Of a stretch of DNA of 64,000 nt, positions 2,946 to 31,959 are shown in pieces (the first letter of the stretch is position 1; the number at the start of each line of letters is the position of its first letter). Origin of the DNA: Crambe crambe (Eukaryota > Porifera > Demospongiae > Poecilosclerida > Crambeidae); NCBI GenBank assembly GCA_963924555.1, contig OZ004586.1, forward strand, positions 4,174,501-4,238,500, written 5' to 3'. The notes under the pieces are model-generated. The model was given only the letters and a program-made list of their open reading frames with translations, ran no database searches and was not told where the DNA came from. Made by a program: the position numbers and the translations under genes.

Positions 2946-3059
2946 TAGCCTAGCTACTGAGATAAGGCAAGCAGGCAGCTCATAACTTCAAGTGGTACAT
3001 CGACATCTGACTCCGATTCCCAATGTCTAGTCCCTGCAACAGTCAATCCCAGGATTGAC

Positions 3060-4447: not shown

Positions 4448-4669
4448 CCCCAGTGCAGTGGAGGTGGATGCCACCCTCAAATAGGTATGTACTTATCTAA
4501 AATGTTTTTTGTGTAACTGGTCAACTGGTGGTTACAGATTGGAGACTGTGAAGATGATGAGGCCCTGACTGCCCTCACGGCAGAGGATGAATACTGTGTG
4601 GAGCTCCTGCAATGGTCTGGGTAATTTTCAATGCCAACAGTATGTTTGCATCATTAATAATTATAGAGT
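4448..4669. other. unassigned spacer between LINE fragment and LTR element
   Basis: The interval holds a GTATGT...TTACAG intron-like segment (about 4483-4537) followed by a short open frame ending in a stop near 4622. I could not join these into a credible coding exon, because the upstream frames do not match. It may be a host relic or captured sequence. Confidence 0.3.
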
Positions 4670-5077: not shown

Positions 5078-5130
5078 ACATCGACGACTAGTTTGGGTCA
5101 GGATCCCGCAAAAGAAATCTACGAGATTGG

Positions 5131-11310: not shown

Positions 11311-11678
11311 TTAATGCATCATTATCTCCACAATATCCAGAACAGCCTTGGCGTGATCTTTAGCTTCACTGGCTTGCTCATGTGTGTAGTGGTCTGAGGG
11401 AATATCAGCATACCCTGGCCAGCGATTAGGATATCGTGTGTCCAAGTAATAGTTCTCAAGTGGGATACAATGCTGAGCGAGATTTTGAGATTCTGGGGGA
11501 ACATTCTGTAGGGCCTGCAGGGCATAAGCATGTCTTGTCAGGCTATGATCCATCAGACCACGTCCATCCAATCCACAGAGGGCATACACACCTCCTTTCA
11601 GTGCCTTCTCCACCACTTGGTGAGCCATGAAGCACACGTGACCATAACCAGAGTTAATTTGTGCCTCGTTGTAGATAC
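11311..11678 (-). CDS. gene A last exon: HEPN domain
   Basis: This exon encodes most of a HEPN domain, the C-terminal nucleotide-binding/dimerisation fold of sacsin. Residues such as GYGHVCFMAHQVVEKALKGG and YYLDTRYPNRW are shared with gene B's C-terminus. The acceptor (ATAATAG before GTATCTACAAC) joins at phase 1 to the donor ACTG/GTATGT at 11907, giving VLTG-IYNEAQ. The 228-bp intron has no counterpart in gene B. The stop is TAA at 11311-11313. Confidence 0.85.
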
Positions 11679-14600
11679 CTATTATAGTGATCATGATAAG
11701 TGATGTCAATATTGTATCTAGCTATCATGAAAGTGATGTGTTGGTTAGATACAAAAAGTCTTTGGAGGAGGGGAAAACATGAGTGTAGCTACTGCATTTA
11801 ATTATAGCATTCTGTTAATCACATCAGATTCTAGTGTAGTACGTACAGTGCTAGTGGGTCCCTAAACATATCATTGTTTGGCTGGGGAGAACAGCTACAT
11901 ACATACCAGTAAGGACTTCATAATCAATTACAGCTTGTTTCACCCAACGTCCTCCTTCTTCTGGGTTTCTTTGATCAATAATTTCATCAAATGGAGATGA
12001 GTCTTTATTAGAATCTGCACGTGTTTGTTCATTTATGTAAGCTGCATTGATATCGGATGCAGTACGATTCCAGTGATCAAAATCAGATTGCATCTTCGAA
12101 CGACTACATGTTGGCAGAGTTGATGGTTGCTCCATTTCTGGTTTCTTCATCTCTTCAGAGGGATCATCAAGGGGCTCCCCATTGTCAAGGTGCTCTATTT
12201 GCCGCGTAAGAAATAAGAAAACCTTTTTGGCTTTTGCTGGATCATCAAGGTTTTTATCTGGATGCCACTTGAGGTACAAGCGTCGCACAGCTTTTCTCCT
12301 CAGTTCAGGAGTGAGTTCCCACACTTCCTTCAGTTCTTTACATATGGAATTCAATACATCAACTAGATTTCCTTCATACATAGCCTTCCTTAAATCGACT
12401 AAGTCATCATCAGCATCACATGGAACCAAAGCTGCTCTGTCACCTTCTGGCACAAGTGGAGTTACTCTCTCCTTCCTGTGACCTATAAGAAACTTGTAGA
12501 GATCAAGAATACTCACATCCCTACTATCCATATCATCTTGGCCGGTGCTGATCTTGAACTTTTTGTGGAGCCTGTGATCCACTTCTCCTTGCACGGCAGG
12601 GTGCAGAATTTGAGCTAATATGATGTTACCTTCCATTTTCACATATCCAACATATTCCATGGGCCTAAAGATATTATGGAGGTCCTGATCAAGTTGATAG
12701 TGGTAACACTTCGGTATTTCCTCTCCAACCTTTGCTGTAAAATCACCAGCACTTCTACTATTAATTGATAAGCTATATCTGGAAAGTAGGCGTTCTCTCT
12801 GCTTTGATGTGTCTGCTTTCAAGTATCGAGCTAAAAATTGTATAAATTCATCTTTTGAATCAGACACCACTTGTTGGAAAAATGTCTTGTACAAATAATC
12901 AGCGATGTAAATAGTGACTTCATCAGGATCATCACATTCAGAGTCAAGATAGAGACAAGGTTCACTACCATCACTATCAAGGAATACTTCAGTTATGATA
13001 TTTCCAATCAGCACGTCAGATTCTACCAGTTTAATATCAGTTTTTAAATTTCTTACACTTACAATGCTGAGAGATGATAGAAATGTGGAAATAATGGAAA
13101 GCAGACCATCTCTATCAGTTCCTGCTATATTATGCTTTTTTGCAACTTTTACAATTACAAAAGGCTGACTTTCATGCTGAATTGATTCCCCTAGTCGTTC
13201 AGCAAGGTCTGACTCTTCCACTATGTTGCTATCTTCATTAAGTACTTGTTTACACACTAATGACATCCCTAGTGGTCTGACATTTTCTGGTAACAAATAA
13301 CAAAGCTCTGAAGAAGTAATACCATACACTTCTTCTGCAATATCAAAGAAAGAGTATGGAGTATTAGTCAGGTTGAGTTTCATGTGACCAAAATAGTTGC
13401 AAGAGTCAACATAAAGGAAGTCCGTTGATACTTTTAGCCTGCCTTCGGTGTCAGGTAGGTATAATGGAGATGGAATAGCAGTTGATTTATGTTCTTGTTC
13501 ATTTCTTTGCAAGAGACTCTTGAGGTCTTTTATAGCTTCCATAACACTTGCTTTAGTATTTGGATCAGGCCTTAACCCTTGGGAACTTATGAATGCATTT
13601 TCCAAAACGATCTGTAGGTGATTCAAATCCACTTCGTTCTTGATATCAAGTTTCTCCATTAAGCCGGATACTCTTAACAACTCTTCAGGAATTTTATGAA
13701 GGAATGGATGATATCTTTCAATATCACCATACTTGAGAACATGACTGGATTTTATGAGTACCACCTGCCTGTTGTCTTTCTTGAGTGGGTCACTATGCAC
13801 TGGGATACATGGAAGCATGGCAAGAGTTGAAATGGGAACGTTTGATGAATCATCATTAAGAAATATCAGATTATTCAGCATAACTAACACTAAATTTATC
13901 GACACTCCAGTAGGTGGAGACAAGTCACTTGGGTAATTGCTAAAGAGTGCCTCATTAGCATACAGACTCTTTGTACTGATATTCCTGATGTTTGATATAA
14001 CATCATCAATGCTAGCTTTAACAACAATTTTCAGATTACTTAGAAGGCATTTCATCTCCTCATCAGGATAATATGATGTACACATCAGTGGAAGTTTAAC
14101 AATGGGCCTTACTGTCCATAAGAGGTTCTTCAGTTCATCAGAGGCAGCACCATTCAAACTCACCAATGAAGCCTCTTGACAAACACCAGGATGTATCCAC
14201 TCTAAATTAGACAGATTTTCAGTGCAAGCAAATGCAATATTAGAAACTTGACTTAAGAAAGAATAGTCATGGCACCATTTTTTACTAATCTCTTCAGAAA
14301 ATATGTACTCGATTAAAGTAGCTGAGCACTTACAGATGTCTGCATTTACTTTTCTCTGAGCAGTCTTGTTGCATATGCTCAAATATTCAGTTTTGGTTAA
14401 ATCAACCTTGATCCCAAGCTCTTTAAAGAATGTCAGCCACTTTTCAGATTGCAATTGCTTTGGTAAAACTTGGAAATCACAAGAGAAGACGTTGAATATT
14501 TCTATTGTGTGATCACAGAAAGAACTGATAGGTTGAAGGCAGGAACTGTCAGAGCCTATGCATTTCAAGTTGGTCAAAAATCCAATAAACTTTTTTGCTT

Positions 14601-15366
14601 CAAAGATTCTGTTTACAGTTGACTCTTTCTGGTTATGTGTGTCGAGATCATTATAGCGTTGACAAATAGAGTACATAGTATCTCTAATATCCTCCAAATG
14701 GTTATACCTCTCATCTTCATCTAACTCAGTGAAATTGGGGAATATAAATTTTATATATAACTGTTCTTTATTGATAATCGTCATTGATAACTGCTGATAA
14801 GAGCCTAATTCCTGCCATTTTGCATTATCTTTGATAAAAATGCTGTTTGAACCTTTTGACCATGATTTGTAACCAGCAGCTGATGCATCCTGAGGCCAGA
14901 TGAATGCTTCTCTGCCAATTATAGGTTGATACTGTGCCAAAACATCTTCAAAGAAAGGAAGTGACTGTACAAGGGTTAGCCACTTCCTATCTGCAGGCTT
15001 CGGACTTCGAGAGAAATATTGTATCATTATATCAATTTCCTGTGCCTTCAATGTAGAGATCAAAGGGGTGATATTATTAACTTGAAAAACATTGTATAAA
15101 ATACGATTCCTGTCATTCAATTTTGGACAATCAACTTGGGCCTCGACAACGGAAGAATCCAGAAATGGCATTTTCAATTTCTGCATTACGGTACACATGT
15201 TCTCGATTGTGAGATCAGGTGTTTCAGGAAGACACGTTGGCACTACTTCAGGAAGATACATTGGCAATACTTCAGAGCTCAAGGAGAATAAGTGATCATC
15301 AACTGTTAATAACAAAGCCCAATTCTTTAGAAACTCACTTAGATGTTTTGAAAAAATACCATCACG

Positions 15367-15373
15367 AAAAAAA
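15367..15373 (-). other. gene A lesion: frameshift in a 7-base homopolymer
   Basis: A run of seven T on the minus strand shifts the frame by one. Before it the sense frame reads KTILDMFF and after it DGIFSKHLSEFLKNWALL, both aligning with gene B. Six T would keep the frame. Homopolymer length is error-prone in assemblies, so this one needs reads. Confidence 0.75.
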
Positions 15374-15421
15374 CATGTCCAGTATTGTTTTAGTGTGTCT
15401 TTTCTGATCAGAGCTGAATAG

Positions 15422-15424
15422 TTA
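15422..15424 (-). other. gene A lesion: in-frame TAA
   Basis: The stop falls between QKCVTN and LFSSDQ, a poorly conserved linker where gene B reads through with VAEVSNATEV. It is not a homopolymer, so sequencing error is less likely. Confidence 0.8.
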
Positions 15425-16672
15425 GTTGGTCACACACTTTTGAGACTTCAACTTCAGGTGGAAGGTATTGTCAAAAATATTGAGAATAACTTTCAATATT
15501 CTTTCTTGGTCAGCATCTTCAGGATCAATAAAATATGAGGAATCAAATTGTATAGTTGTCAACTCTGGATGTAGGAACTTATCATGATGCTGACTTGGAA
15601 AGAGATGTGAAAAACGAGAATTAAAAATCTTATTCTCTGCATCAAATTTCCTCAGAACTCCATCAGCTGATAGCAAGAGAAAGTGTGAAAAAGGTTCTTC
15701 TGGAAACCTATAAGGGGGTTCGGGTGTTGCGCTGATACTCACCGTCTCGCTTGTACTAGTTCCGTTCATATTCTCAACTATTTCAATCTCAAGTAAATAT
15801 TTGATGAAGGCCAAGAACGTTTCAGTATTGTGGAAAACAGTTTCTGATATTCGATATGGCTCCATAGTGCCACTTGATGCAAAACTGTTATGCTTTGTAT
15901 AATAATCAAAAGCTGACTGTGGAGAGAGAGAAGGAATTTTATGGCTTGTGGATACTGTACTTGATGAAGTGAGAACCACCTCTTGAGGGTTAGAATGAGT
16001 TGCATATTTTTGTTGGGGTTTGGTTGGAACAAGAGCCACTTCCTTTTGGTCAGAGGATCGGGTTACACTTTCTTGTTCAGGTTTGGATATTACAGCATTA
16101 AAGCACTCCATCACTCTGGGTGGAGCAGAAGTTAGTTTCATTCCCATGGATGAGAGGATAGGATGAATGACTTTTCGTTCTGCACCAGTTATTTTGTATG
16201 TCCAAAAGTAGACTTGATCAGATTGTGCCTGGGAGATCAGTGGATGCCAAGTTGCAATAATTTTTTGTCCACTACTAGTTGAAGCATCAGATTCGAATAT
16301 GCACAAAATTTGGGCATTATCTTTCAATAATATTTTGTAAATAATGCAGTTCAATTTATCCCACTGTTTGGCAACACTGACTATACTAAATCTTGGGAAC
16401 AAGCTATAATAATTGTACAAGGCATTCAAAGCAAGTGTCCATCCTTTGTATTTGGAATCAATATAATAATCCTTGGTATTAGTAAGGAAGTTGGCATATG
16501 AAGATGCTATTGCTTTGAACAGATTATCATTCCATCTCGATCTGTTATCTTGGACATCTGGATCAGTGCTCTTCCATAAATTTCTTCTATTTGAATCCAA
16601 AATGAAGTGACCATTCACATGAACAGGTAGGCCGCTTTTCACAGGAAGTGGCAAGAAGCAAAATAATTGTCC

Positions 16673-16675
16673 CTA
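16673..16675 (-). other. gene A lesion: in-frame TAG
   Basis: TAG stands between SNTERS and GQLFCFLPLP. The downstream block is conserved in gene B (GQVFCFLPLP), so the frame is right and the stop is genuine in this sequence. Confidence 0.85.
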
Positions 16676-19600
16676 TGATCTCTCAGTATTAGAATGGGGA
16701 AGGCTCAAAGGTGCAGCAATTCCATGTCTTGGCTTAACTGTTCTCACATACTGCCACATTTGAGACTCATTGTTGATGTCACCAACACCTTGTTGGATCA
16801 GCCATTTTTCCTGTATATCTTTACCTCCATTTTCTAGACAGTTGATGTCAGTTACTGTCAGAGGATAGCGAATAACAAGAGTCTTACAATTCATCTCATT
16901 CTTGAAAGCTGAGAGAGTTTCATGAAACTTTTGTGATTCATCTTTGAAAGCAGCTGATTGTGGAATCTCTGTTTCAAAGTGGAACTTTGTGTCCAACTTG
17001 ATGCCCTCTTCCTCTATCACCATGAATTTGATTTCTTTCACGTTATTAAGAAAAAACATGGCCTGTTTCATTTGAGGCATCCACTTATGCATAAGGTCAT
17101 ATAGATCCTCAGCAGTGAGAGGTGAAGATATTTGATCCTGATGATCCACAATTCGAGAAGACTTAATCATGTCATGGGAATGACGTATAGGAAACCGAAA
17201 AAGAGTACCGTTTAAAACTCCAGGTGGGACATCACTTAAGCCAGTTTGAAGATAAGCTGAACTCATATCTGGGAATTTTTTCCAAAAACCTTTATGCAAG
17301 TCATCATATCTTCTCCCAGGATGCAGTTGATCAGCTTCTTTGATGTACTTGCAATGAGGGTCCATGATGCAAAGTGTTTCACCACCTGTTATCAAACTTG
17401 GGCAGTCAGTGAGATGGTATACCACATTGAAACCAATACCATACTGACCAATCATCTCTACATCTGAACGTTTGCTGCCAAGGCCCAGTTCTTGGATGCC
17501 TTTCAGATCTTTTTCAGTGAATGTGCTGTCATTCCAAACCAAAAGAGCTGGTCCTTGTAGTTCACACCAACTTCGAGATATCACGCTATTTGTGCCATGG
17601 GTACGTTTATCAAGAATGAAGTACATCTTTTTAGCTTTTGCATCATCAGCATTTTGTAGTAATTCTTTGAGAATGGTAATATCAAAGGGACAGTCTCTGA
17701 TAATGTTCTGAATTCTCCTGGTAAGTTTTTCATGTTGACCGAATTCAACTCCTTCAAAATATGTATCTTTCTTGGACATGAACTGCTGTAGCATCCTAGA
17801 TCTTACCAGTCTCACACCCAAATCTTCAGCTAGATTTCGAGGGAATATTTCATGTACATAGTCATATTCATCATCAGAGGCAGCCCATGGGGCATCATTG
17901 TATGCTAGATCAATTGCCTTCTGAAGGACAAGCTTCCTATTCGGTAGATATACACTTAAACCTCTGAACTTCTCTTGAGGAGATTCCACTTTCTGAAAGA
18001 TTGATATCAACTCAATTATGAGATTTTTACATGATTCAGTAACAGGTTTATCTCTGAAATCTGCTTTCATCTTTCCCAAAGCTTTCTGGGCATCATGATG
18101 GGAGAACTCTTTTTTTACCTTCAGAGTTGATAACAGCTTTTGTTTTGATGCTATAGATGGTGGTACCACATATAAGTATGGACCTTCCTTCAACTTCCAA
18201 TCTAAAGCAACTGTGTCAAGGCTTAAAAATTTCTGCCCATTCCAGATACATGGAATACATTCCAATCCATGCAAATTAAGTCCAGAATCACCTGATTCAA
18301 TGAGGGCTGATTCTATGAAAGCATAAATCTCAGAACAAGTATAATTGATCCACTGGAAGTCAATAGTAGACGATGAGTCAATTACCATCTTCAAGTGTGC
18401 TATCACTTCATCACAACTAGGAGAAGATCTCAGATGCAATAATCCTCTCATTCCTCTTTTTATAAAGCCACACCCACCATCTTTAGGTAGGGCTTCATTG
18501 ATAAATGCAACTTGAGATCCTGCTATTCTCGTATTGGTCAAATCTGGGATATACGAAAATGCTCCAGATAGCATTAACTGATTCCCACAGAGCAACTGGT
18601 GCTTATCTCCATACCATTGAAGTGGGTATTCATTGGGTTTTTTCATGACAGGGAGAAAGGGAATCTTGTCTATTGTGGCACTACCACTCAGTGGATTACC
18701 AGATATGGGAGTGGGATCAGATATCGTCTCGAGAATGAGCTTCACACGATTGAGTGCTTTCAGATGATCGACTTCAATGAGAGTTGCTACAGTTCCGGCT
18801 CTTTCCAACACAAGAGTCCAAGATATGGATTGGTACATCATTCCCAAGTGTTGCAGAGCTGTGCTAGCTAGGTGTCTAGTGACAAGTACCCCAAGAGGAA
18901 ACCTGTTTTCAGACTCATCAAATAAACTAGCAAAAGAGGCACTTGGATGAATCACTTCAGTACATTTCCTGAGCACATCTCCAGCTTTACCACATGGGAT
19001 GCAAGCATGGCTATCAAAATACTGCTTGAGTAGCCTACTTATAGTTGATTGGCTATCACATTGCGAAGTGTAAACTTCAAGCATGTAGCGTATAACTTCA
19101 TTCCTACTACTTTTGATTCCAGCAAGGCTTGGTAAACTCTCAAAAAACAAATGTGTGAAGACTTCCTCGGTTATGGTGAGTCCTGTGAGATCAAGTTGGA
19201 ATCTATATGAAGAGGGCAGGTCAACTATAGGAAGAGACAGTTGATGTACGACATCAAACACACATGATGGTGTACCAAACTGGCAAAGGATATTTGATTC
19301 AAGGAATTTACTTTGCTGAACAGTCAACCATTTTTCGATCGACTCTGAGTGAAACAACTTTTGTGATGCTAAGATTTTGTAAAATGCATTGAGACAGTGT
19401 TCCCATGGATATTTCAGTTTAAGTTCAGACTTTAATGGCCATAAAGAATAAAATATGTAATTTTGTAGCATATTGTTCACATGCAATCTTTGAAGGTTAC
19501 TGAGAAGTCCAATATAAGCCTGAGGGATTAACTTTGTCATCAAAAACATATTCCACTGAACCTCAGTATCAGATCGTGAAGTGGATTCATCAGAAGTCCA

Positions 19601-19683
19601 TATTCCTCGCCGGTTATTAAAAACAGCAAAGTTACAGCTCACATGGACAGGAAGGCCAGTGGTCTGTGAGAGAGGGAGGAAAT

Positions 19684-19688
19684 AAAAA
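19684..19688 (-). other. gene A lesion: frameshift in a 5-base homopolymer
   Basis: One extra T, relative to the frame used on each side, separates GEIF from YFLPLSQTTGLPVHVSCN; gene B has GEVFCYLPLSLFSGLPVHVSCN. Two reading frames overlap here by about 85 bases. Confidence 0.8.
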
Positions 19689-21608
19689 GATTTCTCCTTG
19701 AATGTCAGTATCTGCATTATAAGTGCTCCCGCCTCCTCTAATGGTGTTTAACATGCATGCTACATGAGCTATTCCACTCTTCCTTCCATGAAGGGACTCA
19801 TGCTTTGAAACCAGCCAGTTATTACTTGACTTTGTCTTCTCTCTTACTTGATTTGATTCCACACAAATGACTGAAGCACAGTTGAGAGTGATCGGAAATT
19901 GTGAAGTTGTTTTACAGATTTTGTATAGAAGTGTAGGTTTGGTCTGACCAGTCACGATCTGTTGGATGGTGATGCGTTTTATATGTTGCAGGAACAGCAA
20001 AAGTCTATCACCACATTGTTGAATGGATTGAATGAGCTCCCCTATTGCTGCTTGGGAGTAACATTTACCACCAAGTTCACTCGCTGAAGTTCGAAAAGGT
20101 AGTCTGAATATCGTACCATCATATTGAGTATTACAATCGAACCCAAAGAGTCCAGCATATGGCTGAAGCTGCTGAGATTTCCTGATGAGTTGGGACAAAT
20201 ATTTGACCCTTTTTCCAGGTTGTGCTCGATTTTTAACCACAGTGCTAAGATGTTTAAGTGTTGGATCGAATATGTACAGTCTATCTCGACTGATGAAGGA
20301 AGGCACATCAGTGATGTGATAGACTGAACAGAATCCTATGCCAAATTTCCCAATTTTCAAGTGCTTTTCCTGTTTAGTAGCACCTGCTAACTTCTGGATA
20401 TTGTCAAAGTCCTCATCACTAAATGTGCTGTTATTGTGGACTACCAAAGCTGGACCATGTGACTCAACCATGTCTGGAAAGAATAGCTTCTTACGATTGA
20501 TATCATGAGTCCGAGCATCAAAGCAAATATTGATTTCAGTGGCTTCTGCATCATCTGCATTTTGAATCAGCTCCTTGACGATTGTCAAGCCATCCTTGTA
20601 ATCTCGTAAAATGTTTTTCAGTTGCACAATCAAAGGCTCTTGTTGACCAGCATTTCTGAAAGTATCCTCAGTAATGTCAAGTTCTTCACTGAGGGGCCTG
20701 ATTTGAAGACATTTGGCCAGGCTGGAACTGATACGATCGTTGACAAAAATTAGTGGTTTATCTGAGTCAATGGATGACATGGCAAAGTCCAAATCCTTGA
20801 AAAAATCGTTATCTGTGTAGATCAGCTCGCTTGATTGTCTTAAATCTGGATATCTTGAGTCCGATTCAGCTGGAACGAGAATAGAATTGTGAAATATTTC
20901 CTCTGTTCCATTATTTGTTAACCAGTTGAGAATGGCCATAACTGTACTCCATGCTTCTCCAGGATTTACAGAATTACAATTACTATTGATCTCATTCTTG
21001 ATGACACTCAATATTGACACAATCTGTGTTTTGGAAAGAGTCTTATTCATCCCGAATGAAGTGAAAAGAGTAGAAAAACTGGAGATACTGTCTGGGAGTA
21101 TGTGCAAGTAAGGTTCTATGTTATGACGGAACCCAGGATTCTGCTGCAATGCTACAGCATTCACACCAACAAATCTGTCATACTTCTTTATGTATATCCA
21201 TTCATTCATGGATCTAAGATCATTGAGTTGACCTTTAGAATCCTGGTTCACCAGCTGTAACATTTTGGAGTAAATGCAGTGAACAATTGATGACATTTGA
21301 TCAGATGAGATGGAATTCTTATAGGCTATTACTTGAGTGAAATGTGGGACGAGATGCACTGTGGGTTCTTCAGAGGCCAGAAGAGCAAAAACATTGGCAT
21401 TCACACCTTCTACATCTGGAGCAGTGAAATACACTTGTGAACCATACAGTAAGGGAAGAGAAGGTGAACCCGAACAAGATACACAAGCAGAGCCATTCAG
21501 AGCTATGAAACGTGATGTAAAGCCATCTCCTTTCCATGGTAGAGAACTGGGGTAGTTTTTGGGTTTTTCTGAAAGAACAGGAAGCCAACTCCTGTTATTA
21601 GAGAGATA

Positions 21609-21611
21609 TTA
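21609..21611 (-). other. gene A lesion: in-frame TAA
   Basis: TAA replaces the residue aligned with D in gene B's FTTALDFLSSNR; gene A reads FDTAV-stop-YLSNNRSWLPVL. It is the first lesion in transcript order. A transcript stopping here would encode about 1642 residues: 2A, Death, module and SIRPT1. Confidence 0.88.
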
Positions 21612-24373
21612 CACAGCGGTATCAAATGGAAGATATCCTGGGTTATCTTTGATAGTAAAGCTGCCTGAGGTTTGATTTTTAAAACTTGTATTTCCAATGT
21701 ACTTCAGGATAGCCTTAGCACGATTAAGTTTGGTTGAATTGACTTGCTGTGGATGGCTACTCGATCCTGTGCTTATGCTGTATATGACATCAAGAACTTC
21801 CTGAGGGCTGACTGATGTTTTCATGCCACAAGATCTAAGTACGTTTAAGTACTTGTCATATGGTGCATGTGGAAAGACATCTTCACCTAAGTATATTTGA
21901 CTGGTGACATCATTTGGATCATACAGTTCATTTGGATATTTCCTGTAACCTGATGCTATCTTGACAAATCTCAGCTGCTGTGTGGAGTTAGTTATGCTGT
22001 AATTTTTGAACTGTAAAGATTGATAAGCCTCAAGCACTCGAGTCATGATTTTGTCAATATCATCCCCAGTAATAGTGCCATTCTGAATGTAAGGGAAAAT
22101 GTAGCTTGTTACAAAGTTAACGTCATTTGGTGCCTGGATGGAAAGTTTCTTCAGCAATTCATTTTGATAGTAATCACTGCTGGAGAATAAAACTATCGAC
22201 TGAGGGAAGACAGAGATGTCAACCACTGGATTGGAAGGCTCAGATAAAGCCTGTCTAAGAATTGACTGAGAAGAAGCTTCAGATATGGAGCAAAGCCTTC
22301 CTGAAGTATTTGAAGAAGTAGTGAACATCTTTAAATTCGTAATGATCTGCCGGTAGTTTGAAATACTCGCCATGTTAAAGAATTGTGTTTTTAAAGTGGT
22401 TGCTTCTTGTGGAGTCAGTGAAACATTATAGTAATAGCTATTCTTGGATATAGCTTTCAGCAGACTCTCAGGGGAAAAAGGTGTGAGATATAGTGATATC
22501 TGCCTGTGTGTGAGATAAGGAAAGCTGCTCTGTTTCACATAGAGAATGCTGAACTTGCTCAATATGGTGATCATCTCATCACCGAGAGAAACATGGGATG
22601 GAAAATAGAGGTTTTGATTGGATAATGTGGCAACATTGAATTTCACTGTTGGATGATACCCAGAAACTTCAATTGGGACAATGAACTTGCCATGAAAACT
22701 TCCCAGATTCTTGTTTTGTACCCAATCCCAAAACTTCTTGAACCAATCAACTGGAAACTGCGAACTTGTAAATGAAACTTCTTCCATCCTACTACTCCAC
22801 TGTGAAGGCATGGCTTCATCCAACAGGGAAGCCACAGTGGCCACATTTAACAATTTGAGCTGCGTCTGGTTTGAACTGGCAACTTGTGTTAGGAGATGTT
22901 GCAAAGTTGGATCACTTGAAACATCAACGAGTTTTGAATTGAGATTAGGGAGTAGATACCTTGGGCTTTCTGGTGTGCATAGGTATATGGGTGGATTGAA
23001 TAAAAAACTGCTAGTCAGAAAGGCAGCAAAAGTGCCATTGGCTAGTGGGAGTAGTTTCAAATTGGCCAATTCATTGTAGTTAGAAATGCCATCAGATAGA
23101 CAGTATTTCAGCAGCTCACATTTCCCTATAGCATCAATAGATGTGTAGCTATTTGGATATGTACGGAGTTTATCACGTAAAAATTTTGGGCTAATCAAAG
23201 TCACAGAGATTCTCACATAAGAGAAAGCATCCCATACACATGTGGGAACATCTGCTAGCTTCACACCACAAGAAGTAAGGGTGCGTTCAACAATCGATAT
23301 CAATTTCTGTGACTTGGGGACATAGACAGCATTGGTTGGTAAAACCCACTCACCTGATTGCTTGAGTGGTGCGGACCAGATCACACTGTTTCTCAGTAGA
23401 GTTTGAAATAGTGAAGTTAAAACATCTTCCCAGTGTGATCCTCTGAGCCTATTGACATCAGGCCAAGCTTTGTAGAAAACGCTACTGTCATGCATGCTAA
23501 GATGATTCTTAGCTTCAAGCAAGAGATCGACATAACAGGATGGTATGACTTCTTTTACCAGGAGCTTGTTCCAATTTGCCGTGGGATCATTTCTCCTCTC
23601 CACAGCAGGCCACTTCAGACTCCTACGGTCGTCAGTCAACCCAAATGTCCCATTGATATGAACAGGAAGATTAGAAGCAGCCTCTATGGGCATTGGAAGG
23701 AAACAAAATATCCTGCCATTACCAGGGTTATCCAATTCCAAAGCTGTTCCAACCCAGGGGAAAACTTTCTGCTTGACAGATGCTACCCTAATAGTAGAAT
23801 TTGAGGAACCAACTTGATTGGCCACAAGCCAGTGGCTGGTAAGGGTCTGCCTAGTACTGGCATCGTACACACTGACATCGAATTTGGCAGTAAATTTGAT
23901 TATGTTGGAGAAATTGTATTTATAAGATGTGTGGATACGTCTGAGATCATCCAGCAGTGATCTTCGTTTCTTGGTAAGTTTACGCACAAAAGCATCAGAA
24001 ACCTTGGCCTGAAAGGAGAGAGTATGCTGCCCATGTACATTTATGTTATAAACTTCGATGGTTGTTATGGAATGAAGAAACAGAAGTAGAAGCTTTGCTT
24101 CAGATTTCAGTGCATTTATAAGCTCATTAACTTTCTCAATGGAGTAGATATTCTCCGATAAATCGGACACTGCATTGCGCAGAGGAAAACGAAACAAAGT
24201 TTTATTGTAGCTGGTAATCATTGGACTGAAACCAGCTATGCCGTAATATGGTGTAAGGTGGTCAGTACCAGCTACTTCAGATAACTGGTAAGATCTTCCT
24301 GACTCTCCTTTCCATAATTCTTCTTGAGGTTCAAGATAAGCAATTTTGTTACCACTAATGATAGTGGGAATAT

Positions 24374-25132
24374 CTGGTAAAAATAAAGTTAAAAAAGATT
24401 ATGCCTGTCAGATATTAAAATGCTGGAAGCATTATAAAATCATAAGTGTATTAAGGAGTAATGAGATGGTTTTACCCACCTGCTCATCACTCGGGAGGTT
24501 TTGAACTACCTTATGTTCTAATATTATGTATGAGACAATAATAAAATACCACCACATAATAATTCAATGAGCAGGCGTACAGCTTTTGTATACAATATGT
24601 AATCTGGCAGACGTAGAATGCATGTCATCAGCCTTACAAGTAAAAATTATAAGATGGTAAAAATAAGGATCATCCAGCAAATGAGCACAGCAAGTGAGCT
24701 GACTCTCAGATCATGCATGGCCCATTGCAAGTGAAGCGAGCCACTAGGGAGTCAGATGCGGGGCATTACTGCTGGTTTGTAATCATAATAATATTTCTTC
24801 CGGTGGGATACAGTGATGCCATCGGCTAAAGCTTTGCTTGCCACAGACCACTGTGTGTGCATAATGCTGCATGCTCACATCACCATAATTACATACCATG
24901 TGATTATTACATGCATATGAATGTTATCTTCCCTTCATAACAGGTGAGGATGACTCCTTAGGGGGTCTCTGCGAGAACATCTGTTTGTGTGTGTATCATG
25001 TAGCTGTTACAGACCCACCCACAAGTAGGTACAATTAATGGGATTTCTGGTAGGAATTTGACAGAAGTATGTAGAGCCAGCTTATATAGCTAACAGCTTC
25101 TCCAACTGTTGGCATGAAACAAGGTACCTTAC
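24374..25132 (-). other. gene A intron 8
   Basis: The intron is 759 bp. Its donor is ACTG/GTAAGG and its acceptor TTTTTACCAG, both phase 1, at the same place as gene B's intron 2. I see no gene inside it. Confidence 0.8.
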
Positions 25133-25391
25133 CAGTTAGATGGTAGACAGAATTGAAGCCAAGTCCAAATCTTCCCACTTTGAAAGGATCTTCAGCCTTG
25201 ATGCTTTGCTGGAGGTTCTGTATTCCCTCCCAGTCCTCGTCAGAAAATATGGCGTCATTGGCTGAGATGAGAGCAGGACCTTGATAAGGGGCAAGACCAG
25301 GATGAAGCAGGGATGAAGTCTCATGTTGTCGGCAGTCCACATAGAACTGGACTTCAGTTGCTCCAGCATCATCAGCATTCTGGATCATTTC
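25133..25391 (-). CDS. gene A exon 8: first GHKL-ATPase core
   Basis: The exon is 259 bp, the same length as gene B exon 2 and in the same phases (0 to 1). It encodes the N-box MIQNADDAGATEVQFY and the G-box VGRFGLGFNSVYHLT of the first sacsin ATPase-like domain. The family is Hsp90/GHKL-like and binds or hydrolyses ATP. DNA similarity to gene B exon 2 is visibly higher than elsewhere between the paralogues. The acceptor is TGTGTATAG. Confidence 0.9.
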
Positions 25392-25833
25392 CTATACACA
25401 CAAAGAATAAATTATTCCAGCCTTCCAAAGTAAATATATCTAAGGAGAATTGTTTCTGGTCTTAAGAACTTCATTTATAAGTGCTAAACATCTTCTATTT
25501 CTCAGCCATTGCTCAGAAAACACAGATAGTTCAGTGAGACTAGCAGGATGCCATTTATTTCTTAATACATGTTTGACTGTAAGGTCAAGGTCACATGCAT
25601 GTGTTTGCGCATGCTACTAATAGGACGTATGTACCACGCATAGTCGCCTCCAGCACTGCACCTTGGCACTTCGGTGTCGAGGCAAAAAATTTCTGTATAC
25701 AGCCCTAGTTGGGTAATATGGGTGTGTGGTTATCGAAGTTAAGATAGGTAGGGCTCTTTTATTCATGAACTGTTTTGAACTTTACATACACAGCCATTCC
25801 TACTTGTCTGTTATTTACCTCATCTTTACTTAC
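25392..25833 (-). other. gene A intron 7
   Basis: The intron is 442 bp with a GTAAGT donor. No recognisable gene lies inside. Confidence 0.75.
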
Positions 25834-25943: not shown

Positions 25944-26642
25944 CTATACCATAAAGTTTGTATACTACTATATTGACATGCTCAGTATATACACATCACA
26001 TAAATTCTGAAGTGGCAGTTTATAAAGTTCTGGTTGCATTCATTATACACATGATCTTATCATTTTGCAATGAGGCCATAGGCTCTTAACTACGGCAATG
26101 TGCAATATTAATTTTGACAGCGAGTGAGCAGGCAAGTATTCTTTAATTTAGTGCTTCAATTAAGATTTTGTTGAGTTTATATGTTATAAAGTACTTAGAT
26201 AAGCCTAGAGCCTCTACAACTACTACTATAGTAATATGCAGCATTTGACAGTGAACAAGTGAGTAATTAAAGTAGTTGATAGGTTCCAATGCTTGATATT
26301 GCTGTCAGAGACAAGAGTCATGTTAGTGGTGGTTCCAACCAGGAAGCTCCATACATAGAAAGCTGTAAATGCTTACAAGCACTTAGCTAGTTAAGCCAAG
26401 TGCCACAATCCACTTAGATAAGCCTAGCGCCTCTATGATAAAAGGCTGTAGAAAGCAGTCTACCTCATTACAATTGGAGCGCACACACGTGCAGCGTATG
26501 ATGTATGTGGCATTTTGGAGCATAGACCTAGATATATATATATTTACAATTTCAATGAGTCATGACCTGAGAGTCAGCTCACTTGCTGAATTATTAGAGG
26601 TAGCCAGGCTTTTAGCTATGTGTGCTACTTAAAAACACTCAC
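25944..26642 (-). other. gene A intron 6 (junction least certain)
   Basis: The intron is 699 bp. Donor ATGA/GTGAGT is strong and the acceptor is weak. Short direct repeats of TTAGATAAGCCTAG(A/C)GCCTCTA occur near 26197 and 26418. If it is not spliced, the upstream frame stops in TAA about 13 bases beyond the donor. Confidence 0.5.
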
Positions 26643-27077
26643 TCATTTTGACATCAAAATTGTATCCATGAACATGTTCCCTGACTACATTTTTGGGACT
26701 TTCGAATGCAAGATGAAACTCATAAGTTTCACAGTCCAGCAATTGTACTCCAATTCCAAGCAGCTTTCTCTCTTGTTCATAACTCAGTGGAAATATATTT
26801 GGTTCACATTCACAAGGATATTTGAATTCATACAGACTATCCTTTTCCTTGTGAAAGTTCAGAGCAGATAAATCTAATACACTTGATAAGTCCCTTAAGA
26901 GAGTTTTCATTGAACTTGAAGCTATACGATTAACTCTCAAAAATAAGGACGAGTAAGCTTCTGTAGTGCTGGCATAGTCTGATGGTGCTGGTGACAATGG
27001 AGATTGTGGTGATGGTGAAGGATCAAGTAATGAGGCAGTTGAAAGCAGTGGTATTCCCATAGATGGTGAAATACTAC
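26643..27077 (-). CDS. gene A exon 6: Pro/Ser linker plus small beta-like module
   Basis: The exon is 145 codons, phase 1 at both ends. It begins with a Ser/Pro-rich linker (SPSPQSPLSPAPSD), then a segment with PLSYEQERKLLGIGVQLLD. That pattern echoes PLKKEQIDQLKGIGILKLF at the end of exon 5, so the two exons may carry related units. I recognise no named family. Acceptor AAACCACAG is good. Confidence 0.6.
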
Positions 27078-27982: not shown

Positions 27983-28238
27983 CTATTAAAGGAGAGGTGT
28001 TGAAAATGATTATAGAATAATACTTCAGAAGGGGGCTAGGAAAAATGAGTTTGCATGTGACAAAGGATTCTTCAAAATTGAAGCAAATACTGATTGAGTC
28101 CTGTGTAGTCCCCCAAAATGTATACAGCCCAACAGATTCTTTTCCCACACATCGATTGATAATCATGAATCACACCACAAGGTATAGTTACGACTTTGCT
28201 AGGGAGCCATGCACCTTTGAGCTAGCTAACGAATTTAC

Positions 28239-28373
28239 CTTCATCTGTGCCAACTTTGGGCATTAGTTCAGAATGGCTCTCAGAGCATGATTGAGAGGTA
28301 GTGCTTGCTGATGTTAGAGTTTCTACATTACCCACAGATGCAGTTACAGGAGTTGCAAGATCCAAAGGTGAGT
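28239..28373 (-). CDS. gene A exon 3: Ser/Thr-rich linker
   Basis: 45 codons, phase 1 to phase 1, disordered (TASVGNVETLTSASTTSQS). Acceptor is TTTTGTATAG and donor GAAG/GTAAAT. It continues in frame from the Death exon and into exon 4. Confidence 0.65.
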
Positions 28374-29592
28374 CTATACAAAATTATGTCATCCTACCAA
28401 ACTGAGACAAAATATTAAGTCTAAAAATGACATAATTTATGAGTGGCTCTTAATGTGGCTCTTACAGTCTCTACTACAGTGAGAGAAGTATAGAATGCAT
28501 GCTATGGTGCTAGCCTTGTCCCCAGGCTCTATTGAAAATAGAGCCTGGTATCAATTGTTTGTGCATGCGTGTAGTATACAGGCAATAACCTGAAAGTTTA
28601 CTGAGTGAGATTCCTTTCTCCTTTTCTTTACTGTTTTTGTCCAGTTTTTCCATACCTTTCACTACTGCAGTACTTATGCTCAACAAGACTGTCTTTAGGC
28701 TGGTTTTATTGTTTGGTCCTCAGATCATTTTTTCATGAATAAACATCCATTTATGTGCACAAGGAATATACAGAAGCTTCAGAATTCCAAGGCTAACATG
28801 TACAACTGATACCAGGCTCTCTTTTAGACAGGTCACAAAAGAGTGCCTGGGGCCAAGGCTAGCTATGGTGCCAAAGCACTGTTCAGAAGAAATAGCTAGC
28901 TATTATTGCAAACTAGTTTGTTTCTAAAGAAAATTTTCATATAGTGATGCTACACTACCCTCGGTATGAAGTATGTATGTGCATATATCCCACCTAATTT
29001 CATAGGATTTTTTACTGGAGAGGTGAAACAATCTGAGTGGAAATTTGCATAACCTCACCCACTCATGCCAAACAGTCTGGCTGCACATGATAAACTATGG
29101 CTAGGTGAAAACAACATCACTCAAGTGAAAGCACAACAAAAGACAATGCAACTGGCTGAGCTTCTAATTCTGTCGCCAAAGCATTCCCTGGAAAGATTTA
29201 CTCCAGTTGTCATGGTCTCCTCTACACTAGGAGGGACTCATTAATAGCTGGGTGTGGTGGGCATGGGAGGAGTTTGGCAGATTCACAAAATGGTTGAGAA
29301 CTTCTGCACTAAGGCTCTGTAGAGTTGAAACAGTGCCTGGACAACCACATCCCGAGGTGTAGGCTATCCATGGCTAGATAGCTATGGCAGAAGTTGTTTT
29401 TTTTTCTTTCTAAGGAGCTGGAGTAGCTAAATAACTACAGACTGACCAATGGAATTCCTGTGCCCTGGGGATAAGTTAGTATGATAGTTCTAGTGATTAT
29501 GGCCACCAAATCCAAGGGTGCAGAATACCGTGTTCTAGATTATTGTGGGGATCGGAAGGCATTACAATCATGCATATAATGTACAGCTGTAC
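28374..29592 (-). other. gene A intron 2
   Basis: The intron is 1219 bp with a GTACAG donor and TATAG acceptor. It hosts the TIR element at 28511-28861. The rest holds nothing I recognise. Confidence 0.65.
28511..28861. mobile_element. TIR element with 10-bp target duplication
   Basis: The ends TAGCCTTG-CCCCAGGC and GCCTGGGG-CAAGGCTA are inverted repeats of about 20 bp with two mismatches. The direct repeat GCTATGGTGC flanks it exactly (28501-28510 and 28862-28871). A subterminal hairpin (CCAGGCTCTATTG/AGAGCCTGG) is present. At 351 bp with no ORF it is non-autonomous. The 9-10 bp duplication suggests a Mutator-like (MULE) transposase, which is inference. A related CCAGGCTCTC hairpin occurs at 1447. 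Confidence 0.75.
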
Positions 29593-29847
29593 CTTCCGTG
29601 ATAGAATTAGCAAGTCCTGTCTGATCAATCTTTTTAAGTGCTGTCTTTAAACGCTCCCAGCTGGGTTTACCAGGGACATAGTCTTCCTCATTGAGCCATG
29701 CAGCAACCATTTCGTCGCACAGTGGGTCCATTTTTTTCAGCTTTTGGTAAGAGAGTCCAAGTGCCCCACCCAATTCCCTCAACTTGTTTATATCCAAATT
29801 TTTCAGAAATTGAACTATTTCAAAATGGTCTTTCATTGTTAATATTT
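29593..29847 (-). CDS. gene A exon 2: Death domain
   Basis: The exon encodes one Death-fold domain (FEIVQFLKNLDINKLRELGG, then ALGLSYQKLKKMDPLCDEMV, AAWLNEE, SWERLKTALKKI, LANSI). It has the six-helix spacing and the two typical Trp positions of this homotypic interaction family. Death domains recruit partners in apoptosis and innate-immune signalling. The acceptor is very strong (TTTTTTTGTAG). The donor GAAG/GTACAG leaves phase 1. An internal ATG (29836) lies 4 codons into the exon, so translation could also begin here without the 2A peptide. A decayed relative lies at 1145-1290. Confidence 0.85.
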
Positions 29848-29923
29848 CTACAAAAAAACAACAACAACAACAATAAAGTTATAATTCTTCTGGATACTGT
29901 AGCTAGGTAACTAATATTCTTAC

Positions 29924-30116
29924 CAGGTCCTGGATTTACTTCAATATCACCAGCCAGTATCAGCAACAAGGAGATGACTACTTGACTGTTAGTACAATGG
30001 ACACCATAGCCTTCTCCTCTTTGTAGATACTTCCAACACTCTTTCAGTGATGGGACATTATTAAGATCAATTTGGAGGAAATAGAAGTAGAAGCAACACA
30101 AACAATCTTTAAACAT
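29924..30116 (-). CDS. gene A exon 1: N-terminal 2A-like peptide
   Basis: From the ATG at 30116 this exon encodes 64 residues ending VVISLLLILAGDIEVNPGP. GDIEVNPGP is the 2A consensus D-(V/I)-E-x-N-P-G-P, at which the ribosome skips the last Gly-Pro bond. The donor CCTG/GTAAGA is phase 1 and joins to the Death exon after the final Pro, so skipping would release a 63-residue leader and a Death-containing product starting with Pro. A hydrophobic run precedes the motif, as in 2A-like sequences reported at the N-termini of some sea-urchin and sponge NLR-type proteins. A T-rich tract ending TTTTGTAG directly precedes AATG, so a 5' UTR exon may lie upstream. Confidence 0.8.
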
Positions 30117-31959
30117 TCTACAAAACAACAACAAAAAACAATAACAAAAACAAGTGTCTTAGAAACTATGTCCCTAAGATACATAGACTAACTACCTAGA
30201 TTGTTTACTAATCAAAAAGTAGTACTTTCACTTTCAACTGTCTCATGATCAGTCAACAGACAGAGTGAGACTAAGTGAATAGTTCCTTCTCAGTCCTTTT
30301 GACAAATTATTGTCAAGAGATTCAAGCTAAATCTCCCTATCTGCTTGTGCATGACCTCATCAAGTGAATAATGGGGCAACTGAAGCAAGCCCTGGGTCAC
30401 TTCATTCATCACAACCGTGGGTAAACTGAGCATGTGTGCTCACCCTACAAAGCTAAATGATTTGGTAGAACTTAGAGAGAGAGAGAGTAGCTTCTGATCC
30501 CTCAGAGAGTGTTTAGTTATGTATGTTGGGTACCCTCCAGGGGTGGATACAGGGAGGGCTGGGGGGCGGTAGTGCACCCCCCTCTCATTTCATAAAAAAT
30601 TGCTAGCACTGAGGCATATAACTGAATTATCCTGTTTTTGCTTCTCAAATTGCACCAGGTGCAATCTAAGAGGATCAAAAACTCAAAATTTTCCCAGGGG
30701 AGCATACCCCCAGATCCCCCTAGATGGTGTGCTTTGTGCACTGTGTAGCCTACCTTGAAGTTTCTACCCAAAATTATGGAACCCTGGCAGTGGTCTTACA
30801 ATGCACATGGGCATGTGTCCCCTCTTTTCCAATTCCTGGATCCACCCCCTGCCCTCCTAGCAATTTGGTGGGTGGGGGCACGAATTTTCACCACCTCTAG
30901 TCTATAGTTAGGCTAACCTCTGACAGCTATGACTTACATTATTGCCAAACTTGCTTTGTGTACTATCGCTTCCAATTCCTCCAGTAGGTGTAGTATTCGG
31001 TTCGGTAAACCGCAGCTATCGGTAACCGGAAATATGTTGAGCATGCGCATTACAACAGCATGCAATCCACCGGAAGTCTGTTGCCAGAATACAAAATTAC
31101 TGCAAACTCAGCATAAAGAATTGCAGCTGTTTTACATTTCATTTGATTTTTTTTTGTGAATTGATAGTGTTGAGATGTATCATTTCTGCCTGCAAATTTT
31201 GTTTATTCTGAGAATTTTCTTGTGTATTTAGCTAATGTGATGCAAATTCCTACTTTTTTCATGTCATTTCATAGCAAGAAGACATTTCCCCCCATGGAAA
31301 GAGTACTACAACATTCGATCTTTCCCATGTGATATATTTCTACAGACTCAACTATTTGATGAACAGCTGACATAATTATACTAACACAGTATGGCAGCAA
31401 AGAAGTCAGAAATTGTGTTTGATCAATGCATACACACACATTATTATAACAAGTTTGATTTTTGATATAAGATAATATCTATTAAGTCAATACATGTCTT
31501 ACACTGAAGAGAAGTGATTTTTGACCGCAATTAGCTATAGTGTTTTTATCAGCCATGATTTCATGCACTGAGAATTTATTCTAGTAAAGTGTTAGCTATT
31601 TATCAAGAGGAGGGTGAAGAAGTTGTTAAAATTTCCAGAAGTCATGATAGCCATAAGTGCATGGAGAGTAACCAGCAAGGAACCTTGTTGCTTTGAGACA
31701 GCTCACACATAATAATTAGCTATGTAACTTCACAGTACTAATCCCTATAACCAGACCACTCTAAATTCTATAACTACCTAGAAGTTATGCATAGGCTACC
31801 GGTAGCTAAAAACTACAGTGTAGCAAAAAACCACCTCCTTAATTAAGTAGATTATCCTGCTTGGCTAATCCATTTCCGGTAGCAGCCTACATAACTAGCT
31901 ATATAATTAATGTTCGACTCTATACTCGTTTCCTGATAGCTGTAGTAGTTTGCTTCGGT
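30117..31959. other. divergent intergenic region between genes A and B
   Basis: About 1.8 kb between the two start codons would have to hold both promoters. It contains the TIR element at 30538-30851 and no supported ORF. I see no unambiguous TATA box in a convincing position. Confidence 0.5.
30538..30851. mobile_element. MITE with CAGGGGTGGAT ends
   Basis: The left end CAGGGGTGGATACAGG is matched by the right end CCTGGATCCACCCCCTG as an inverted repeat. CCCTC flanks both sides (30533-30537 and 30852-30856). Length is 314 bp. The minus-strand ORF overlapping it (30517-30771) is fortuitous. The end sequence looks hAT-like, but an 8-bp duplication is not evident. Confidence 0.6.

What the first reader, a model, noticed from the sequence alone, without database searches (positions are those of the whole stretch)
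29593..30116. 2A ribosome-skipping peptide directly in front of a Death domain
Exon 1 encodes a 64-residue leader ending GDIEVNPGP, and its phase-1 splice places the Death exon right after the final Pro. If skipping works, one mRNA gives a 63-residue leader plus a Death-containing protein; read-through or use of the internal ATG would give others. 2A-like sequences are known from viruses, non-LTR retrotransposons and some invertebrate NLR-type proteins. One in front of a sacsin-type gene is, to my knowledge, not described.
Basis: partly seen in the sequence, partly recalled or inferred. Interest (0 to 1): 0.88.

Follow-up and report, generated by a model that had tools for sequence, protein, structure and literature searches.

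The report
2A leader exon before Death domains
A sponge gene begins with a short peptide of the kind that makes ribosomes release one protein and carry on with a second, placed right before a cell-death signalling domain, and the same arrangement recurs across the genome, which suggests that this sponge uses a trick best known from viruses as a common front end for immune-type receptors.

Summary
On the minus strand, 30116-29924 encodes a 64-residue leader ending LLILAGDIEVNPGP; a phase-1 junction (29924/29847) puts P-E-ILTM-Death directly after it. It is not a one-off. The genome (very probably the demosponge Crambe crambe) holds 208 exact D(V/I/M)ExNPGP-encoding sites; the reversed control gives 0. 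In 44 of 50 2A loci read, the first GTRAR donor after NPGP is in phase 1. Of 181 2A places compared, 49 have a listed Death row within 1.5 kb downstream on the same strand, 0 upstream, 0 antisense (shifted control: mean 4). Against a sister gene, coding exons are 82-84% identical and the intron 56%, supporting the splice without RNA. NACHT, STAND and ankyrin exons also lie downstream of such leaders. Two corrections: the sacsin part of this very copy is broken (at least two stops, two frame changes), and the leader exon probably follows a 5' UTR intron. Most likely it is an active L-rich-class StopGo leader giving a 63-residue peptide plus a Pro-initiated Death receptor; activity is inferred, not shown. 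Sea urchin NLRs are the known precedent (Roulston 2016). Rao 2025, a eukaryotic and viral 2A survey, could not be read, so priority is open.

The parts
30117..30140 (-). probable 3' splice acceptor (pyrimidine tract, AG^A) one base before the ATG: a likely 5' UTR intron
   Evidence: the same pyrimidine-AG-A-ATG arrangement in L010-L015 and L057. No RNA evidence.
29924..30116 (-). first coding exon: 64-residue leader plus one base (phase 1)
   Evidence: 83.7% identical to the sister gene (144 of 172 aligned bases, 21 gapped) against 40.9% and 64.7% in the flanks and 56.0% in the intron
29925..29948 (-). 2A/StopGo core octapeptide DIEVNPGP (predicted skip between Gly and Pro), preceded by LLILAG
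   Evidence: pattern at 29926-29948, 0 in 100 shuffles; core definition from PMC12846837
29848..29923 (-). intron 1, 76 bases, GT...AG, phase 1
   Evidence: (12 of 12 window-type loci have an in-phase AG within 40 bases before the Death start)
29593..29847 (-). Death-domain exon, symmetric phase 1-1; internal Met at LTM-KDHF
   Evidence: 81.5% identical to the sister (207 of 254)
28222..28383 (-). probable low-complexity linker exon (SPLDLATP...); boundaries not fixed
   Evidence: open frame; similar peptides at L014 and L016
27146..27859 (-). conserved exon: helical part followed by a TRADD-N-like segment (my assignment, unproven)
   Evidence: 76.4% identical to the sister over 27988-27164; peptide family also at L014 and L016; no Pfam match on its own above chance and none relevant for the segment family in Pfam or PDB
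26629..26976 (-). second TRADD-N-like exon (my assignment, unproven)
   Evidence: 80.1% identical to the sister over 26976-26699
11506..25432 (-). sacsin-like region, broken in this copy: at least two in-frame stops (21609-21611 and 16673-16675) and two frame changes (near 19.7 kb and 15.4 kb)
   Evidence: Pfam SACS 1.6e-36, 8.4e-17, 3e-77, 6.2e-73 on four pieces; frames; sister row C9:4128517 lies in a 4320-aa open frame

Best explanation
The exon encodes an L-rich-class 2A (StopGo) leader. During translation the nascent chain LLILAGDIEVNPG blocks peptide bond formation to the next Pro. The 63-residue leader ending in Gly is released, and the ribosome continues with a Pro-initiated protein, P-E-ILTM-Death-..., that is the receptor proper. 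A minority of read-through would give a fused protein whose hydrophobic leader could send it into the secretory pathway, as shown for sea urchin NLRs. In this genome the leader exon behaves as a copied cassette (probably an intron, then ATG...NPGP with a tail of 0-9 codons, then a phase-1 donor) joined to phase-1 Death exons of many receptor-type genes. SHOWN from sequence: core motif, exon phase, recurrence, strand and order of the Death exon, synonymous codon variation under a constant core. INFERRED: splicing, skipping activity, products, dual targeting, immune role. This copy's own C-terminal part is probably decayed.
For: Core fits the published active consensus (D/G/C/N)(V/I)ExNPGP, and LLILAG fits the L-rich (A/S/C)G class with p12 = D, of which a motif 6 example was active in lysate (PMC12846837). 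208 exact sites against 0 reversed. 58 of 60 leaders found by similarity alone, in the contig range that one search printed in full, carry the exact core. p11 = G and p10 = A/S/C in 41 of 42 distinct leaders; core pN 0.11 against pS 0.67 (the extraction required the core, so its invariance there is built in). Donor one base after the Pro in 30 of 30 loci L009-L038, the window's own included, and at 78 sites genome-wide (control 0); in 14 of the 20 loci L039-L058 the first GTRAR is also in phase 1. Death row downstream <=1500 nt for 49 of 181 places, upstream 0, antisense 0, shifted control mean 3.96, maximum 9. Exon/intron identity contrast with the sister.
Against: No RNA or translation data. 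dN/dS against the sister is only 0.63 for 43 leader codons and 0.47 for Death, on few changes. 19 of 50 loci show no Death-like frame within 1 kb. Six of 50 loci have no GTRAR donor near NPGP: L043-L046 only a weak GTATTA/GTATCA in phase 1, L039 only a possible GC donor, L057 none. A Met just inside the Death exon, kept in 11 of the 12 aligned exons, would allow an independent start. The sacsin part of this copy is broken. Full 2A activity in FMDV needs >30 residues of native context (PMC12846837), which cannot be judged here from sequence.
Confidence: 0.7

Rival explanations
1. The leader is a signal or membrane-anchor sequence whose NPGP end is not active in skipping; Death proteins are made as fusions.
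For: The 14 residues before the core are hydrophobic (mean Kyte-Doolittle 1.63 over 50 loci, lowest -1.42 at L058); sea urchin 2A leaders also act as signal sequences (PMC4981915, passages).
Against: 58 of 60 leaders found by similarity keep the exact core, and p11 G is kept in 41 of 42, while synonymous sites vary; a plain signal peptide needs none of NPGP.
Confidence: 0.15
2. The 2A comes from, or still belongs to, a non-LTR retrotransposon or a virus inserted near Death genes.
For: 2A is known from non-LTR elements (PMC11512398, passage seen); an endonuclease fragment of such an element lies at 3059-4513.
Against: That fragment is about 25 kb away on the other strand; phase-1 donors and Death exons recur in the same strand and order; no relative confirmed in viral contigs (39 pattern matches, none confirmed; records near this genome may be left out there). 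An ancient origin by capture is not excluded.
Confidence: 0.05
3. This particular gene is a decaying copy, so its 2A-Death front end no longer makes a useful product, whatever the family does.
For: At least two in-frame stops and two frame changes in the minus-strand sacsin region, while the plus-strand paralogue has 4282 aa open and the sister row lies in 4320 aa.
Against: Leader, splice sites and Death exon are intact and diverge less than intron and flanks; a shortened Death protein could still be made.
Confidence: 0.5
4. The Death exon is normally started from its own Met (LTM-KDHF) by another promoter or first exon, and the leader is an optional alternative first coding exon.
For: Met is kept in 11 of 12 aligned Death exons; most of the 300 Death rows have no listed leader just upstream (only 49 of 181 2A places pair with one).
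Against: An in-phase AG joins the leader frame to the Death frame in 12 of 12 window-type loci.
Confidence: 0.2

Closest known systems
N-terminal 2A signal sequences of Strongylocentrotus purpuratus NLR proteins (Roulston 2016, PMC4981915; passages seen)
   Same: 2A core at or near the very N-terminus of innate-immune proteins with a death-fold domain; hydrophobic stretch before the core; many paralogues (85 of 241 by their count; 14 of 87 NCBI entries with a 26-residue N-terminal 2A).
   Different: Sea urchin leader 26 residues; here 64 in the window, and of varied and uncertain length elsewhere (start Met not fixed); here it is one exon with a phase-1 junction just after NPGP; here it fronts Death exons of several receptor kinds in a sponge. 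Activity was shown in the sea urchin case, not here.
L-rich StopGo classes (motifs 2 and 6 of Li 2026, PMC12846837; abstract, introduction and sections 10 and 14 read)
   Same: (L-rich)(A/S/C)G followed by D(V/I)ExNPGP.
   Different: Those were defined on viral sequences; here cellular and N-terminal.
Sponge Death-like/TRADD-N expansion (Amphimedon, 357 proteins; Kaur 2021, PMC8195603; section 10 and passages read)
   Same: N-terminal Death-like unit, then (by my unproven reading) TRADD-N, then a variable C-terminus.
   Different: The terms '2A peptide', 'NPGP' and 'recoding' occur 0 times in its main text. Its sacsin fusions are listed under the DEDD2/TRADD-like clade, not the NCOA6 clade of the sponge expansion.
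2A at the N-terminus of non-LTR retrotransposon ORFs (Odon 2013; title and citations only, paper not held)
   Same: cellular-genome 2A
   Different: I saw no retroelement frame in the downstream frames printed for L009-L058

Membership tests
2A/StopGo sequence | core (D/G/C/N)(V/I)ExNPGP | tested here: met
   DIEVNPGP
2A/StopGo sequence | upstream hexapeptide of a known class | tested here: met
   LLILAG: L-rich with AG before D; 41 of 42 distinct leaders have p11 G; class described. Compared by eye, not by their FIMO motifs.
2A/StopGo sequence | separate products on translation | not testable with these tools
   needs an in vitro or cell assay
Death domain (PF00531) | Pfam gathering score on the window exon alone | tested here: not met
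   12.8 bits against 22.6; 7 of 12 family members match weakly, best E 0.0071
Death domain superfamily | profile homology to proven death domains | tested here: met
   A1 against A3 hhalign 96.9%, E 1.7e-10; A3 against PDB death domains E 4e-7; three exons used in A3 reach the Pfam cut-off. Direct: A1 against PDB finds none.
Death domain superfamily | six-helix fold | not tested
   structure prediction answered busy in 19 tries
Sacsin-like protein | SACS domain PF25794 | tested here: met
   but the frame is broken in this copy
TRADD-N domain | profile match or RRM-like fold | tested here: inconclusive
   no relevant Pfam or PDB match; a GS pair in the first copy recalls the uS turn described in PMC8195603
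Sea urchin-type NLR 2A | 2A at the N-terminus of a Death/NACHT protein | tested here: inconclusive
   for the window gene no NACHT; in the genome 2A, Death-like and NACHT frames lie in a row at C12:673951 (L056), and NACHT rows lie 0.9-5 kb downstream on the same strand at C12:668102, C16:2088615, C9:8373101 and C21:1489880; that they are one gene is inferred from position
Non-LTR retrotransposon 2A | 2A in frame with a retroelement ORF | tested here: not met
   the window leader joins a Death frame; no retroelement frame seen by eye in the downstream frames printed for L009-L058

The most novel reading that the evidence does not exclude
StopGo is a standard, heritable front end of animal innate receptors: in a sponge, a phase-1 2A-leader cassette has been spread over a hundred or more Death-type receptor genes of unrelated C-termini, so that translation of a whole receptor repertoire passes through a ribosome-skipping checkpoint that could switch products between cytosol and secretory route, possibly with stress. 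Together with sea urchin NLRs this would be either an ancestral animal device or a striking convergence.
Probability: 0.45. Interest if true: 0.85.

Novelty: new variant of a known kind. Interest (0 to 1): 0.74.

Why it matters
A 2026 paper still calls natural StopGo largely confined to viral decoding and used only rarely in cellular genes (PMC12846837). One sponge genome with 208 2A cores, many of them standing before Death exons with the same splice phase, would make cellular recoding of immune-type receptors a broad phenomenon in an early animal lineage. It offers natural paralogue series in which skipping efficiency, leader function and dual targeting can be tested directly. It would also mean that gene annotation and structure prediction for such receptors should treat the leader as a separate product.

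Tried and rejected
Chance motif: rejected. Retroelement or viral remnant: disfavoured. Unique to sacsin: rejected. Window Death exon directly by Pfam or PDB: not significant; taken as Death through its family profile. TRADD-N by Pfam or PDB: nothing relevant, left as an unproven reading. Structure prediction: no job was ever accepted, so no fold search was made. Literature: searches showed me no paper on 2A in sponges in the held library (listings; in the two papers that looked possible, PMC5890393 and PMC5009743, the passages were unrelated). Rao 2025 and Odon 2013 are not held, so priority over them is unknown.

Rows dropped: one search used 94 of the 150 Death rows; it is replaced, which used all 150 plus the 150. 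The 181 places merge the 137 with 57 rows typed (44 of them new); one search printed only 100 of its 208. The Death lists hold 150 of 327 and 150 of 965 candidates, so 49 is a lower bound; within 3 kb there are still 49 downstream and 2 upstream. In one search, 21 of the 50 loci had supplied the profiles (20 of these hit); of the other 29, 11 hit within 1 kb; antisense 0 of 50; upstream 1 of 30 (L031, E 0.003). One search accepted any in-phase AG within 40 bases, so single cases could be chance. NACHT neighbours were read by eye (103 scored of 232 candidates), and so was the rough number of sacsin-like genes.

Full report
WHAT IS THERE. Reading the minus strand, an ATG at 30116 opens 64 codons, MFKDCLCC...QVVISLLLILAGDIEVNPGP, followed by G and a GTAAGA donor. 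A 76-base intron ends in a pyrimidine tract and TAG, and the next exon (29847-29593) continues in phase 1 as E-ILTMKDHFEIVQFLKNLD...PSWERLKTALKKIDQTGLANSITE. That exon ends again in phase 1 at a GT. Unspliced, the frame would stop after 34 more codons. Directly before the ATG there is a pyrimidine tract and AG-A, and the same pyrimidine-AG-A-ATG arrangement stands at the ATG in L010-L015 and L057. The leader exon is therefore probably preceded by a 5' UTR intron; if coding began in an earlier exon the leader would be longer.

MORE THAN CHANCE. The codon pattern for D(V/I/M)ExNPGP occurs once in the window and in none of 100 shuffles. In the window's own genome it occurs 208 times, the reversed pattern 0 times. 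Searching with the leader as a protein gave 137 places, the window's own included. In the contig range that one search printed completely, 58 of 60 such places have the exact core. In 30 of 30 loci read first (L009-L038, the window's own included) the donor lies one base after the last Pro; 78 sites genome-wide have core plus one base plus GTRAR, control 0. Of the 20 loci chosen from other clusters (L039-L058), 14 have their first GTRAR in phase 1, 0 to 3 codons after NPGP; L043-L046 have only a weak GTATTA or GTATCA in phase 1, 8-9 codons on; L039 has a possible GC donor in phase 1; L057 has none.

WHAT FOLLOWS THE LEADER. I merged 181 2A places and compared them with 300 Death rows: 42 have a Death row within 200 bases downstream on the same strand and 49 within 1500; none has one upstream or on the other strand within 1500 (2 upstream within 3000); shifting the places by 5-50 kb gives 3.96 on average, 9 at most. 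Both Death lists are capped, so this is a lower bound. In the 50 loci read in detail, 31 have a Death-like frame within 1 kb (21 loci had supplied the profiles, and 11 of the other 29 hit). At 12 of 12 window-type loci an in-phase acceptor joins leader and Death. Three of the next exons reach the Pfam Death cut-off (7.1e-5, 1.1e-8, 5.1e-6). Further on come NACHT (L056; four more by position), a STAND-type NTPase (L022) and, without a Death-like frame found in between, ankyrin repeats (L010; L049). That these lie in the same genes is inferred from position and strand. 19 of 50 loci show no Death-like frame within 1 kb; L018, L019 and L028 have frames I read as Death-like slightly later; the C5 group (L024-L027, L029, L037, L043-L045) shows none in what I fetched.

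IS THE WINDOW EXON A DEATH DOMAIN? On its own it misses the Pfam cut-off (12.8 against 22.6 bits), and its family profile finds no death domain in the PDB. But the 12-member family aligns with the other 2A-next exons by profile comparison (96.9%, E 1.7e-10), and the profile of these matches RIPK1 (4e-7), PIDD, FADD and Fas death domains. I accept it as a divergent Death domain. No structure could be predicted (tool busy each time).

THE REST OF THE GENE. A sister gene 61 kb away (C9:4143704-) has the same order: leader, Death, two exons that I read as TRADD-N-like, and sacsin. Against it the coding exons are 83.7% and 81.5% identical, the intron 56.0%, the flanks 40.9% and 64.7%. This contrast is the best evidence for the splice available without RNA. 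dN/dS is 0.63 for 43 leader codons (11.5 and 5.5 changes) and 0.47 for Death: mild constraint only. The TRADD-N reading rests on the described architecture of Amphimedon proteins (PMC8195603, section 10 and passages) and on a GS pair; Pfam and PDB give nothing relevant. The sacsin part of the window's minus strand carries SACS domains but is split by at least two stops and two frame changes, while the plus-strand neighbour has an open 4282-aa exon and the sister row lies in 4320 aa. This copy is probably decaying. Of roughly 25 sacsin-like genes (estimated), only these two have a leader hit just upstream.

WHICH ORGANISM. Of ten contig lengths shown, nine round to chromosome lengths of Crambe crambe in Table 2 of PMC12166358 (passages seen): 9.57, 9.68, 9.49, 9.08, 8.84, 8.73, 7.63, 6.57, 6.34; one differs by 0.01 (9.17 against 9.18). 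Total 143.14 against 143.20 Mb. This is an inference.

HOW IT PROBABLY WORKS. The core and the preceding LLILAG match the L-rich StopGo class, whose motif 6 example was active in lysate (PMC12846837). I expect release of the 63-residue leader and continued synthesis of a Death protein beginning with Pro. The hydrophobic stretch before the core (mean hydropathy 1.63 over 50 loci) resembles the sea urchin NLR leaders, where failed skipping sends the protein to the secretory route (PMC4981915, passages seen). Dual targeting here is by analogy only. Leader similarity extends well upstream of the core, which fits the need for >30 residues of context but could also mean that the leader peptide has a job of its own.

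KNOWN AND NEW. N-terminal 2A on Death/NACHT proteins is known from the sea urchin. New, as far as my searches of the held library show (with passages checked in 9, 41, 42, 66, 67, 111, 112), are the phylum, the exon cassette with its phase, the spread over several receptor kinds, and the scale. Rao 2025 (Cell Rep 44:115822) identified eukaryotic and viral 2A sequences systematically; it is not held and I know it only as a reference and one passage in PMC12846837. If it lists sponge 2A-Death proteins, the novelty falls to a new member of a known kind.

Noticed in passing
window 5092-9609 (+): Retroelement frame with gypsy-type domains in the order zinc knuckle/protease, integrase, then reverse transcriptase and RNase H, i.e. 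integrase before RT (an order I recall from Gmr1-like elements); a SCAN match near the start.
   Followed up: partly
window 35906-48751 (+): Intact 4282-aa sacsin-like exon divergent from the broken minus-strand copy; no leader or Death row just upstream of it (capped lists).
   Followed up: partly
window 50064-63998 (-): Open frame of 4645 aa or more reaching the window edge, with TIG and Calx-beta matches near its C end.
   Followed up: no
G000 C9:3.92-4.22 Mb, C6, C18, C53, C9:7.58-7.65 Mb: Arrays of sacsin-like genes (103 SACS rows), a large expansion in one sponge genome.
   Followed up: no
G000 C1:3553873-3988082 (+): Nine DVELNPGP sites in one cluster; the one read (L039) has a possible GC donor and no Death-like frame, so another gene type may use the same kind of leader.
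   Followed up: no
L058 (C20:1572361): A leader that keeps DIEVNPGP but lacks the hydrophobic stretch (EKAMAD before the core) in front of a Death exon: a natural candidate for an inactive 2A.
   Followed up: no
L057 and the C18:2.03-2.17 Mb group: Four DIEVNPGP places; the one read has no phase-1 donor after NPGP and an in-frame stop three codons on: possibly a leader-only or decayed group.
   Followed up: no
window 3059-4513 (+): Two pieces of a non-LTR element endonuclease, unrelated in place and strand to the 2A exon.
   Followed up: partly
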